Assembly: GCA_028245195.1 (NCBI GenBank)
Contig: JAOKCF010000010.1
Location: forward strand, 1 to 64,000
Source of the DNA: Vicingaceae bacterium
GTDB taxonomy: Bacteria > Bacteroidota > Bacteroidia > Flavobacteriales_E > Vicingaceae
Length of the DNA stretch: 64,000 bases
Direction: 5' to 3'
The notes under the pieces: generated by a model
What the model saw: the letters and a program-made list of their open reading frames with translations, nothing else
Told to the model about the DNA's origin: nothing
Database searches by the model: none
Program-made: the position numbers and the translations under genes
In this document: positions 1-2,660 of the stretch, piece after piece
Numbering within the stretch: position 1 is the first letter of the stretch
Layout of the letters: every line of letters starts with the position of its first letter

Positions 1-594
1 CAGGGAAAGGAGCAGGGTGTTCTCCTTCAATATCTAATTTTTGATTTGCTACTGATGTTCTTACAATATCTTCATTCCAATAATCTCCCATATTCTTTCC
101 TTTTATATTAGGTAGATATGGTGAAACAGAATTTGAGTATTCTCCATTTACACTTCTGTGTCGAGGGGGGAGAGATGGTTTTGTTTTATCGGAGAGTTTA
201 GTTAATGTAGGATAATAGTTATACTTTATAGATTTGGTTAGATGAAATATAAACTCATAAGATGGGGTTAGATTGGATTTTGATGATGAAGGTTTGGGAT
301 TGGTTTTAGACCAGATAATTGTGTTTCTGAGAATCCATCCTTGTTCTTGAAGGTTAAGGATTACCCTATGAGGAATATTTTGAAGGTTTCCATTGTAAAA
401 TGTATCTCCAAGAATTAAAAAGAAACTTCCTCCATTATTTAACACTCTCTTACAATCTCTAAGATGTTCTGATAGATTAACCACAAACTCCTCTGAGGTT
501 TTCTCATTCCCTAATCCTTTTTCATCAGAATAAGTTCTTTTATTCCAATAAGGAGTTAAATTAAAAATCCGTTTTTGATTAAATGTAAAGTTTT
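1..594 (-). pseudogene. DNA amino-methyltransferase fragment, 5' end lost, 3' end beyond window
   Basis: On the minus strand an open frame runs from about 604 leftwards off the window edge. Its translation contains NLTPYW, a degenerate version of methyltransferase motif IV (SPPYW), then RVLNNGGSFFLILGD, then GWILRNTIIWSKTNP, and near the edge EGEHPAPFP, which resembles the HPARFP block just before motif I in beta-class N4-cytosine/N6-adenine methyltransferases such as M.PvuII (from memory). There is no ATG, and the usual segment before motif IV is missing: the frame meets a TGA at 605-607, inside an inverted repeat. The middle proline of motif IV is Thr here. This looks like a 5'-truncated gene. 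A rare start codon within 540-600 cannot be excluded. The C-terminal part lies outside the window. Confidence 0.6.
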
Positions 595-623
595 TTGTCT
601 TATGTCAAAAAAACTTTACATTT
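581..623. repeat. 18-bp inverted repeat (hairpin) between methyltransferase remnant and membrane gene
   Basis: The left arm, 581-597, is AAATGTAAAG followed by six T and G. The right arm, 606-623, is C, seven A, then CTTTACATTT. The arms pair perfectly except for one extra A, with an 8-base loop at 598-605. The T-run and A-run lie inside the stem, so it is not a classical terminator with a 3' U tract. It sits at the point where the methyltransferase frame loses its N-terminus. Confidence 0.75.
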
Positions 624-645
624 GTTGAAATTTAAAAATTATCGT

Positions 646-1104
646 ATGAGTTATTTATTTAGTAATAAGCTTAAAAAAACAAGTGGTATGGCTTTTTATT
701 TGTCAATACTAGTTGGATTAGTTTTATTGTTAACAGATAGAATACAAGACATTTTTATTGTTAACGTTTTTTCAATTTTTTCATATGAGTGGTTTGGATC
801 AGAAAAAACAGGTTTTGGGTGGATAGAAAATGGGTTAGGTGACGAATTTTTTACCTTATTAATTATTGTTTCGGGATTAATAAACTCTTTTAGTAAAGAG
901 AAAATTGAAGACGAATTAATTTCAAGAATTAGGTTAGAGAGTTTGTCTTTATCTCTCTTTATAAGTTTTGGATTAATAATTATATCTACATTTTTAGTGT
1001 TTAATATTAACTATATGTATGTATTGGTGTTTAACTTATTTTTAATAATTCTCTTATTTAATTTAGTGTTTAAATTCAGACTATTCAAACACTATAACTC
1101 ATGA
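646..1104 (+). CDS. Small four-helix membrane protein paired with Xre regulator
   Basis: From ATG 646 this encodes about 152 residues with four hydrophobic segments (roughly residues 14-33, 60-78, 100-122 and 124-146), a charged loop after the second helix and a short basic C-terminus. An in-frame TTG at 595 would add 17 residues, but it lies inside the hairpin at 581-623, so 646 is preferred. The stop overlaps the start of the next gene as ATGA at 1101-1104, so the two are almost certainly co-translated. Two-gene units of a small integral membrane protein and a minimal Xre-type regulator are common in bacteria, often without known function. I do not recognise a specific family, and no catalytic motif is visible. 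Confidence 0.65.
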   Translation: MSYLFSNKLKKTSGMAFYLSILVGLVLLLTDRIQDIFIVNVFSIFSYEWFGSEKTGFGWIENGLGDEFFTLLIIVSGLINSFSKEKIEDELISRIRLESLSLSLFISFGLIIISTFLVFNINYMYVLVFNLFLIILLFNLVFKFRLFKHYNS

Positions 1105-1295
1105 AAAATAATTTAAAGTTATATCGAAGAAAGTCTGGATATACACAAGAAGATATTTCAAAAAAAATAGGTGTTTCTAGACAAACAATAAACTCCATTG
1201 AAAATAACAGATATCATCCCTCTATATTATTGTGTTTGAAACTTTCAAAAGAATTGGATTGTCAAGTAGATGATTTGTTTTTTCTTGAAAGATGA
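1101..1295 (+). CDS. Minimal Xre-family helix-turn-helix regulator
   Basis: This 64-residue protein is one Cro/CI-type HTH domain. QEDISKKIGVSRQTINSIEN (about residues 17-36) gives the two DNA-contacting helices, followed by HPSILLCLKLSKELDCQVDDLFF, the closing helices seen in short YozG-like or antitoxin-like regulators. It overlaps the membrane gene by four bases and probably regulates its own operon, perhaps in response to a membrane signal sensed by its partner (inference). No partner toxin is visible. No terminator-like hairpin follows immediately. Confidence 0.8.
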   Translation: MKNNLKLYRRKSGYTQEDISKKIGVSRQTINSIENNRYHPSILLCLKLSKELDCQVDDLFFLER

Positions 1296-1390
1296 TTTTA
1301 GAAAAGTTTAAGGGGGTAAGGTTAACCGTACAATAAGAATAAACCACCATAGTGGAATGAGTTTTATAGGGGGTGTTTAATCCCTCATCT

Positions 1391-1474
1391 ATGGGAAAAC
1401 GACCAAAAAAATTAGATAAAATTGAGAATCCAAAGATTGTATCAATTGGTTTAATTGATGAGAATTCCCATTAA
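1391..1474 (+). CDS. 27-codon ORF resembling the start of a ribbon-helix-helix protein
   Basis: An ATG at 1391 opens a 27-codon frame starting MGKRPKKLDKIENPKIVSIGL and ending at TAA 1472-1474. The opening resembles the basic N-terminus of small ribbon-helix-helix or mobilisation-accessory proteins, which usually continue into a helical half; here it stops at once. It is probably a gene fragment, or a short peptide ORF inside a non-coding region. A 7-bp hairpin (ATCAATT 1441-1447, AATTGAT 1453-1459) lies inside it. The flanking stretches 1296-1390 and 1475-1515 show nothing else. Confidence 0.2.
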   Translation: MGKRPKKLDKIENPKIVSIGLIDENSH

Positions 1475-1515
1475 TAACAAACTCACCTCAACGTTATCCC
1501 CTACTCGACTTTTTA

Positions 1516-1764
1516 GGATTATCCCCACCTCCTTCAATCCCTTACTACCCGATTGAATCTTTCTCAGAAAATAAATTGAGAAATTCTGTAATATTCTAAC
1601 GTTTATCGTTTCATTACCATATTTATAGATAACCTAAGTGTTCCAATCATAGGTTAAAACACTTACTATTAATTATCTAACAACTTCAATTGAGTAAGAA
1701 CGAAGGGAGGGAAAGGAAGTGGATTAGACATCGGGTAGTAATCTATAGGATTGAAATAATATCC
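1516..1764. ncRNA. Candidate structured RNA or long imperfect palindrome
   Basis: Two arms about 180 bases apart are collinearly complementary. TTCAATCC (1533-1540) pairs with GGATTGAA (1748-1755). TTACTACCCGAT (1542-1553) pairs with ATCGGGTAGTAA (1730-1741). AATC (1556-1559) pairs with GATT (1722-1725). TTTCTC (1560-1565) pairs with GGGAAA (1709-1714), with one G-T pair. Outside these, GGAT (1516-1519) can pair with ATCC (1761-1764). That gives about 30 pairs interrupted by short internal loops. The enclosed part has TAACCTA (1630-1636) with TAGGTTA (1650-1656), and AAGTGTT (1636-1642) with AACACTT (1658-1664), which cross each other. No coding frame fits. The strand is undetermined, and I match it to no known RNA family. 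Confidence 0.4.
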
Positions 1765-2130
1765 GAACATGACGGATGAGATTTCTCCGGTAGGGTTGAA
1801 AATGGTTATGGTATATGATAGATATGCGGGATTCAAACGGACTGGTCTAATCGAAATCTATAATTGAAGAATGGATTCACTCATTAACGGATACACAAAT
1901 CTGTAGGGTTTTGGTGTATCCAATTCAAAGATTGAATAAAACAGTAATGATAATGGATTATGTTTTATTTCAGAATTACTTGATTCAATTACAAGTTATA
2001 ACTGGAATGTTGGGGAATCACACTACCTTATGATAACATTTTAATGTATATAAAGTTTTGGGATTTTCCCAACGGGTATTATGAACTAAAGTTAAAACCC
2101 AATCAAACTTCAAAATAAATCACATGAAAT
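1765..2130. other. Gene-less interval rich in short hairpins
   Basis: No credible reading frame is visible. Several short inverted repeats occur: ATCCG/CGGAT around 1761-1776; GGATACACAAA (1889-1899) with TTTGGTGTATCC (1910-1921), one bulge; ATTCAA (1923-1928) with TTGAAT (1932-1937); AATAAAAC (1935-1942) with GTTTTATT (1962-1969); and TTGGGA (2058-2063) with TCCCAA (2067-2072). With the paired element to its left they make a structured stretch of over 500 bases. Each stem alone could arise by chance in AT-rich DNA. Confidence 0.5.
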
Positions 2131-2161
2131 AAAAAAGGCTCGCATATTGCGAGCCTTTTTT
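2131..2161. terminator. Bidirectional rho-independent terminator of the ExbB/ExbD operon
   Basis: GGCTCGC (2137-2143) pairs with GCGAGCC (2149-2155), flanked by an A-run on the left and a T-run on the right, so it can act in both directions. It lies just past the stop of the last exbD gene (leftward) and also closes off anything transcribed rightward from the 1.1-2.1 kb region. Confidence 0.9.
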
Positions 2162-2183
2162 ATTCTATCCGTGGGAATTATGG

Positions 2184-2660
2184 CTAATCTACAATCTTAT
2201 CTGTCTTTTTCGTGGAATAGTTAATCTTTAATGCATTTGCCTTTCTAAGCTCTTGCTTAACATCCGTTACAATTCCCATCTCAGCTTTCTGATCCGCTTT
2301 GATTGAAAATGTCATCAACGGCACCTCTGCAGGGTCCGTTTGCTCTCTTTCTCCTTCTACAAAAGGAATAATATCTTTTTTAGTTGCAAACGCATCGTTT
2401 AATTGGATTCTATCCGCTGTTCCAAATTGAGCTTGTAATAAATCTGTAGGCTCCCCAATGTAAATGTAACTTACTAATGATTTTCGCTCTAGCTTATTAA
2501 CCTCTGTAGCCATCGGTGTCACCACCTTTACTTTCAATGTTACTTCTCTCATCACGGTAGTTACCATGAAAAAGAACAACAGCATAAAAACAATATCCGG
2601 AAGAGCCGCTGTATTAACAGCAGGAATTCCACCGCTTTTTTTCTTTTTAAACTTTGACAT
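2184..2660 (-). CDS. exbD: ExbD/TolR-family biopolymer transport protein (second copy)
   Basis: This 158-residue protein has a short basic cytoplasmic start, one transmembrane helix at about residues 21-35 (LPDIVFMLLFFFMVTTVM) carrying the conserved Asp essential for proton flow in this family, and a periplasmic domain. It is the last gene of the four-gene operon, 2 bases after the other exbD. The expected role is to couple the inner-membrane proton gradient, with ExbB, to energise TonB-dependent outer-membrane transport or a related process. Two dissimilar ExbD proteins per ExbB is usual in Bacteroidota and may give a heteromeric stator. No tonB gene is nearby. Confidence 0.88.
   Translation of the reverse strand: MSKFKKKKSGGIPAVNTAALPDIVFMLLFFFMVTTVMREVTLKVKVVTPMATEVNKLERKSLVSYIYIGEPTDLLQAQFGTADRIQLNDAFATKKDIIPFVEGEREQTDPAEVPLMTFSIKADQKAEMGIVTDVKQELRKANALKINYSTKKTDKIVD

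What the first reader, a model, noticed from the sequence alone, without database searches (positions are those of the whole stretch)
1516..1764. Long-range paired element in a gene-less stretch: candidate new structured RNA
Four collinear helices (8, 12, 4 and 6 bp, plus a 4-bp outer one) join sequences about 180 bases apart, enclosing two crossing 7-bp stems that could form a pseudoknot or alternate. I see no coding potential. The 12-bp and 8-bp perfect arms in register, separated by small internal loops, are unlikely by chance. Known possibilities such as 6S RNA, a retron msr-msd or a decayed transposon palindrome were considered, but none matches signatures I can recall. It lies next to a methyltransferase remnant and an Xre/membrane pair, so it may belong to an accessory island.
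Basis: partly seen in the sequence, partly recalled or inferred. Interest (0 to 1): 0.55.

Follow-up and report, generated by a model that had tools for sequence, protein, structure and literature searches.

The report
Broken copy of a mobile-element leader
The odd gene-less stretch is a cut-off copy of a conserved non-coding control region found in a family of small mobile DNA elements; the long hairpin first noticed is not conserved, but the region itself is real and its job is unknown.

Summary
The helices are present at the stated coordinates, and an in-register 12+8 bp arrangement is uncommon by chance (3 in 200 shuffles of the window). They are not a conserved RNA structure: in homologues the 12-bp helix breaks with no compensatory change. 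The stretch is still part of something real. All 10 aligned copies share a ~70-bp box (window 1563-1632) that resembles a promoter. Behind it is a slot holding one of three unrelated non-coding cassettes (A, B, D) or, in one element, a small HUH Rep gene. Intact copies continue into a conserved 83-100-aa ORF and an excisionase-like HTH gene. Cassettes of one type are more alike (84-100%) than four-fold sites of the adjacent genes (43-94%). The window copy is type A, cut off before these genes, at the exbD side of an island inserted between glmS and exbD; the probable other end, on contig C5, carries the HUH-Rep version. Best reading: a promoter plus untranslated leader RNA controlling the ORF/HTH operon. 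Transcription and mechanism are inferred. No Rfam family matches.

The parts
1474..1562 (+). Upstream flank, strongly shared only with the copy on contig C5 (L002).
   Evidence: 84% identity over window 1469-1626 to G000:C5:46530-46687; flank diverged in the other elements
1563..1632 (+). Conserved box shared by all 10 aligned elements; promoter-like (TTG 1576-1578, 18 nt, TAACGTTT 1597-1604), not tested
   Evidence: alignment A3; exact 27-mer of the box in 11 of 94 loci held (several loci are the same place)
1612..2036 (+). Type A non-coding cassette, cut off at its 3' end relative to intact copies
   Evidence: 80% to L061 7190-7605, 88% to L076, 79% to L077; alignment A2
1635..1665 (+). Hairpin TAAGTGTT/AACACTTA kept 8/8, 8/8, 8/8 and 7/8 in the four type A copies
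   Evidence: almost no variation, so no covariation
1724..1890 (+).
1889..1921 (+). Hairpin GGATACAC/GTGTATCC; outer pair G-C, G-U, A-U in three copies, A.C in the fourth
   Evidence: columns 303/339 and 310/335
1730..1764 (+).
1..1295 (.). Island cargo: DNA methylase piece (2-484 -), membrane ORF (595-1104 +), Xre-type HTH (1101-1295 +)
   Evidence: MTase 71% identical to the island at the same place in G002
2101..2184 (.). Chromosomal backbone next to exbD, with a 17-bp perfect inverted repeat, terminator-like (2128-2164)
   Evidence: matches glmS-exbD intergenic DNA of G001 and G003

Best explanation
The stretch is a truncated copy of the non-coding control region of a family of integrative elements. 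A conserved box, probably a promoter with operator-like repeats, would drive an operon. In intact elements that operon has an untranslated leader of about 230-560 nt (cassette A, B or D) followed by an 83-100-aa ORF and an excisionase-like HTH gene. In one element a small HUH Rep gene sits in the leader's place. The leader most likely acts as an RNA that sets expression of the downstream genes in a type-specific way, as immunity or copy-control leaders do. Shown: homology, gene order, cassette exchange, nucleotide conservation, truncation of the window copy. Inferred: promoter, transcription, RNA-level action, excisionase role.
For: Second copy 84% identical in the same genome, next to a Rep-like ORF and an HTH_17 ORF. 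Homologues: 2 real among 4 non-self hits in 395 class genomes, full copies in 4 of 35 family-f5 genomes, two copies in 1 of 5 f38 genomes. The box is shared by 10 of 10 aligned copies. The 83-100-aa ORF and HTH follow in all eight copies whose contigs reach that far and which are not truncated. Cassette identity 98-100% (B) and 84-95% (A), against 53-94% and 43-70% at four-fold sites of the adjacent genes. HTH resembles excisionase families. Type B folds with z about -3, type D -7.5.
Against: Type A + strand z is only -0.3 to -1.4 in three of four copies. The RNAalifold covariation term is unfavourable (+4.25), with only 6 of 108 pairs changed on both sides. In B, 4 of 7 variable sites are unpaired against 32% of positions, which is no evidence. 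The -7 match to TAnnTTTG is incomplete, and the TTG is missing in 2 of 10 copies. No RNA-seq. High cassette identity could also come from recent exchange by recombination.
Confidence: 0.45

Rival explanations
1. The box and cassette are a DNA site: an origin (nick site and hairpins) for rolling-circle replication or mobilisation by a HUH Rep. Type C carries its own Rep; types A, B and D would use one supplied in trans.
For: HUH Rep gene directly behind the box in L002 (PF23343 E 4.5e-5, below Pfam cutoff; motif PHIHMVIK read from the sequence); a second Rep-like ORF above cutoff in the neighbouring element of L076; hairpin-rich cassettes on both strands.
Against: No relative of the L002 Rep beside types A, B and D by tblastn; I saw no box upstream of the L076 Rep; the box is equally conserved without Rep; relatives of the L002 Rep are rare (1 of 46 and 3 of 395 genomes, own genome included).
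Confidence: 0.25
2. The cassettes are passive mobile inserts or hotspot cargo that move between elements by homologous recombination in the flanking box and ORF, with no role for the host element.
For: B cassettes nearly identical across two families while flanks differ; three unrelated cassettes in one slot.
Against: The start of A and of B/C/D diverges gradually after the box rather than at a sharp junction; in these searches cassettes were found outside such elements only as decayed pieces.
Confidence: 0.2
3. The window stretch is a chance long-range palindrome in otherwise unconstrained intergenic DNA.
For: The helices are not conserved; the description was chosen after the fact.
Against: 79-88% identity to three other elements over more than 400 nt. 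This rival holds for the helices, not for the region.
Confidence: 0.05

Closest known systems
CI RNA immunity leader of satellite phage P4 (passage seen in PMC4825925)
   Same: Untranslated leader upstream of an operon in an integrating element; type-specific RNA would explain unrelated cassettes in one slot
   Different: CI RNA pairs with seqA and seqC in its own leader and stops transcription; no such pairing, transcript or processing was shown here
sgm-sRNA of Salmonella Genomic Island 1 (abstract seen, PMC9299015)
   Same: Non-coding RNA encoded by an integrative island and needed for its mobilisation
   Different: It lies between mpsA and oriT; no such module was searched for here
HUH Rep proteins of the REP_ORF2-G2P family (PF23343)
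   Same: One element carries such a gene in the cassette slot
   Different: The window copy and nine other copies have a non-coding cassette there instead
Islands at the 3' end of glmS (attTn7-like sites; recalled)
   Same: Island lies directly downstream of glmS
   Different: Recombinase-like ORFs of serine type; no Tns proteins noticed, none searched for; other copies sit elsewhere

Membership tests
Any of the 4227 Rfam families | Score at or above the family's gathering cutoff | tested here: not met
   for the window; for types A and B, all hits below gathering score
   0 of 24 pairs changed on both sides; 12-bp helix broken in 4 of 5 copies
Conserved structured RNA built on other hairpins of cassette A | Compensatory changes in homologues | tested here: inconclusive
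   6 of 108 pairs with a double change, covariation term unfavourable, only 4 sequences
P4-type RNA immunity leader | Untranslated leader transcript processed to a small antisense RNA | not testable with these tools
   no transcript data
P4-type RNA immunity leader | Leader upstream of the element's replication genes | tested here: inconclusive
   downstream ORF matches no family; HTH is excisionase-like; Rep in the slot of one element only
Retron msr-msd | Adjacent reverse transcriptase gene | tested here: not met
   the three window ORFs on the island side were scanned: methylase, no family, HTH; the ORFs on the other side look like ExbD/TolR proteins by eye
Decayed inverted-repeat transposon | Homologues show terminal inverted repeats or a transposase at these ends | tested here: not met
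   homologues show box-cassette-ORF-HTH order instead
SGI1 sgm-sRNA | Encoded between mpsA and oriT | not tested
   no search for mpsA or mpsB was made

The most novel reading that the evidence does not exclude
A family of integrative elements keeps one promoter-like box and one operon but swaps, between them, unrelated non-coding cassettes or a HUH Rep gene. The cassettes would be a new class of mobile-element RNAs (or DNA origins) that set type-specific immunity, copy number or mobilisation.
Probability: 0.3. Interest if true: 0.65.

Novelty: new variant of a known kind. Interest (0 to 1): 0.42.

Why it matters
Non-coding cassettes that are better conserved than the synonymous sites of their neighbouring genes, and that can be exchanged for a nuclease gene, point to a control step of a little-known mobile-element family. 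If they are type-specific RNAs, they give a directly testable case of RNA-based incompatibility or immunity outside the enterobacterial model. The window copy itself is a remnant and probably inactive.

Tried and rejected
Chance hits: a pattern scan of genome contigs gave 4 stretches; L027 lies inside a coding gene, and L027-L030 gave no blastn hit at E 0.01 to the query region. The G229 and G216 matches lie inside coding genes. The DNA search of 60 relatives listed weak matches at E up to 1 in 57 genomes, the best outside the own genome at E 0.0013; I took all of these as chance. Box, cassette and protein searches of viral contigs, phages and plasmids found nothing.

Coding potential: a minus-strand ORF in cassette A (window 1669-1857; 62-97 aa in four copies) has a one-base deletion in the window copy relative to the others, and variable columns show no codon pattern. 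In cassette B a plus-strand ORF exists, but by my reading of the differences most of the few changes alter residues. Both rejected as genes, not excluded.

Decayed Rep in cassette A: tblastn of the L002 Rep found only itself.

Papers: no paper on this element family was seen in searches; these cover only the held open-licence library. What I saw of each paper: PMC9299015 abstract; PMC7366714 and PMC4825925 passages; all others listing only.

Full report
Observation. The stretch folds better than shuffles, z -2.7 and -2.8 on the two strands, 1 of 200 shuffles as good. In the 64-kb window a 12-bp helix at 100-300 nt with an adjacent 8-bp helix occurs once; in 200 dinucleotide shuffles of the window it occurred 3 times in total. 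It is unusual, but the description was chosen after seeing it. Rfam has nothing.

Where it lies. In three same-genus genomes (G001, G003, G004) glmS and the gene at window 2184-2660 (ExbD/TolR-like by eye) are convergent neighbours with short intergenic DNA. Here, backbone similarity begins only at about 2101. On contig C5 of the same genome glmS is followed by foreign DNA. So C5 beyond glmS and C2 1-2100 are most simply the two ends of one island between glmS and exbD; the gap is not assembled, so this is inference. A fourth relative, G002, has a related methylase at the same place (71% over 569 bp), and no copy of the block was found in it.

A second copy. Window 1469-1626 matches C5:46530-46687 at 84%. 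There it lies between a serine-recombinase C-terminal-like ORF (PF07508 E 0.0028, below cutoff) and a 122-aa Rep-like ORF (PF23343 E 4.5e-5, below cutoff), followed by a 100-aa ORF, a 58-aa ORF and an HTH_17 ORF. On the reading above, the two copies have the same orientation within the island.

More copies. Searching 395 class genomes with window 1470-1630 gave 5 genomes with a match at E 0.001: the own genome, G095 (83%), G214 (75%), and two (G229, G216) that lie inside coding genes and are chance. Searching 35 genomes of G095's family with the G095 segment gave 7 with a match: full copies in G095, G445 (two), G439 (two) and G433 (two), and only fragments in G435, G131 and G437. In 5 genomes of G214's family only G214 matched, with a second copy cut by the contig end. 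In all: 11 copies, the window's included, in 6 genomes of 3 families. In 45 other genomes of the window's own family no Rep homologue was found, and 60 relatives gave only weak DNA matches beyond the own genome (best E 0.0013, taken as chance).

Anatomy. Ten copies were aligned (L096 was left out because its contig ends in the cassette). All share a ~70-bp box (window 1563-1632). Most copies have TTG, 18 nt, then TAnnGTTT-like bases. The sigma-ABfr consensus is TTTG near -33 and TAnnTTTG at -7 (passage of PMC7366714); the fit is partial and 2 of 10 copies lack the TTG. After the box come different things. Type A: window, L061, L076, L077. Type B: L062, L080, L081, L082, L096. Type D: L078. Type C: L002, a HUH Rep gene. 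The types share no clear similarity in the slot beyond its first bases, except that A and D share a 3' part just before the next gene. Then come an 83-100-aa ORF with no known family (9 of 11 copies; L062 truncated by the contig end) and an excisionase-like HTH protein (8 of 11; absent from the window copy, beyond the contig end in L062 and L096). Elements differ in how they integrate: serine-recombinase-like ORFs next to glmS or sodA in some, a tRNA-3'-end-like sequence at the left end in L078 and L082 and tyrosine-integrase-like ORFs in L081 and L082, the last two read by eye. So box-slot-ORF-HTH is a core that does not depend on the integrase.

Window copy. Homology to type A ends at about 2036, before the downstream ORF. 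It is a remnant.

Conservation. For the six type B pairs (L062, L080, L081, L082) the cassette is 98-100% identical over about 230 nt, while upstream flanks are 35-53% and four-fold sites of the adjacent genes 53-94%. For the three type A pairs (L061, L076, L077) the figures are 84-95% (cassette), 56-75% (flank) and 43-70% (four-fold sites). L062 enters with 159 bases of one gene only. This means strong constraint on the nucleotides or recent exchange of cassettes; I cannot separate the two.

Structure. The 8-bp helix keeps 8, 8, 6, 8 and 0; its loss in L002 depends on an alignment with a gap there, and an ungapped TCAATCCC/GGGATTGA pairing 168 nt apart can be drawn in L002. That is the one result in favour of the outer helix; it involves no changed pair. 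One crossing stem is lost in 2 of 5 copies, the other weakened or lost in all 4 homologues. A hairpin at 1635-1665 is kept in the four type A copies almost without variation. A hairpin at 1889-1921 shows G-C, G-U and A-U at one pair, but is broken there in L077. RNAalifold over four type A sequences gives 6 of 108 pairs with double changes and an unfavourable covariation term. Fold z-scores on the + strand: A between -0.3 and -1.4 in three copies and -3.4 in L077, B about -3, D -7.5. Type B has 7 variable sites in 246 nt, 4 unpaired, against 32% of positions unpaired: no evidence either way.

Reading. I take the box as a promoter and the cassette as an untranslated leader or RNA that controls the ORF/HTH operon, by analogy with P4 CI RNA (passage in PMC4825925) and, more loosely, the SGI1 sgm-sRNA (abstract). 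The rival I rate next is a rolling-circle or mobilisation origin. Neither is shown.

Noticed in passing
L024 4358-6525; L038 8184-8507 and 13323-15164: The 3' end of glmS looks like an integration hotspot: the same recombinase-like ORF follows glmS in the window's genome and follows both a full glmS and a truncated duplicate in G131 (80% over 753 bp).
   Followed up: partly
L061 13219-14961 and 14884-15999: A 580-aa serine recombinase ORF at the right end of the element runs into the 3' end of glmS on the other strand, while a small recombinase-like ORF sits at the left end; integration may split the recombinase gene.
   Followed up: partly
L076 3593-3961: A second HUH Rep-like ORF (PF23343, above cutoff) in a neighbouring element in G445, only weakly similar to the L002 Rep.
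   Followed up: partly
window 1310-1330; L002 1177-1203; L051 604-672: A short sequence (ggggtaagg.taaccg) occurs near both ends of the island in inverted orientation, and a similar one in the related island of G002; it may mark an attachment site or element end.
   Followed up: no
L024 8924-9166 and 14330-14662; L078 11376-11708; L082 and L076: Elements carry copies of a small secreted-looking repeat protein (VEYENQ-type repeats), a recurrent cargo gene of unknown role.
   Followed up: no
L078 6162-6413: Type D cassette is strongly self-complementary (long nested inverted repeats, fold z -7.5).
   Followed up: partly
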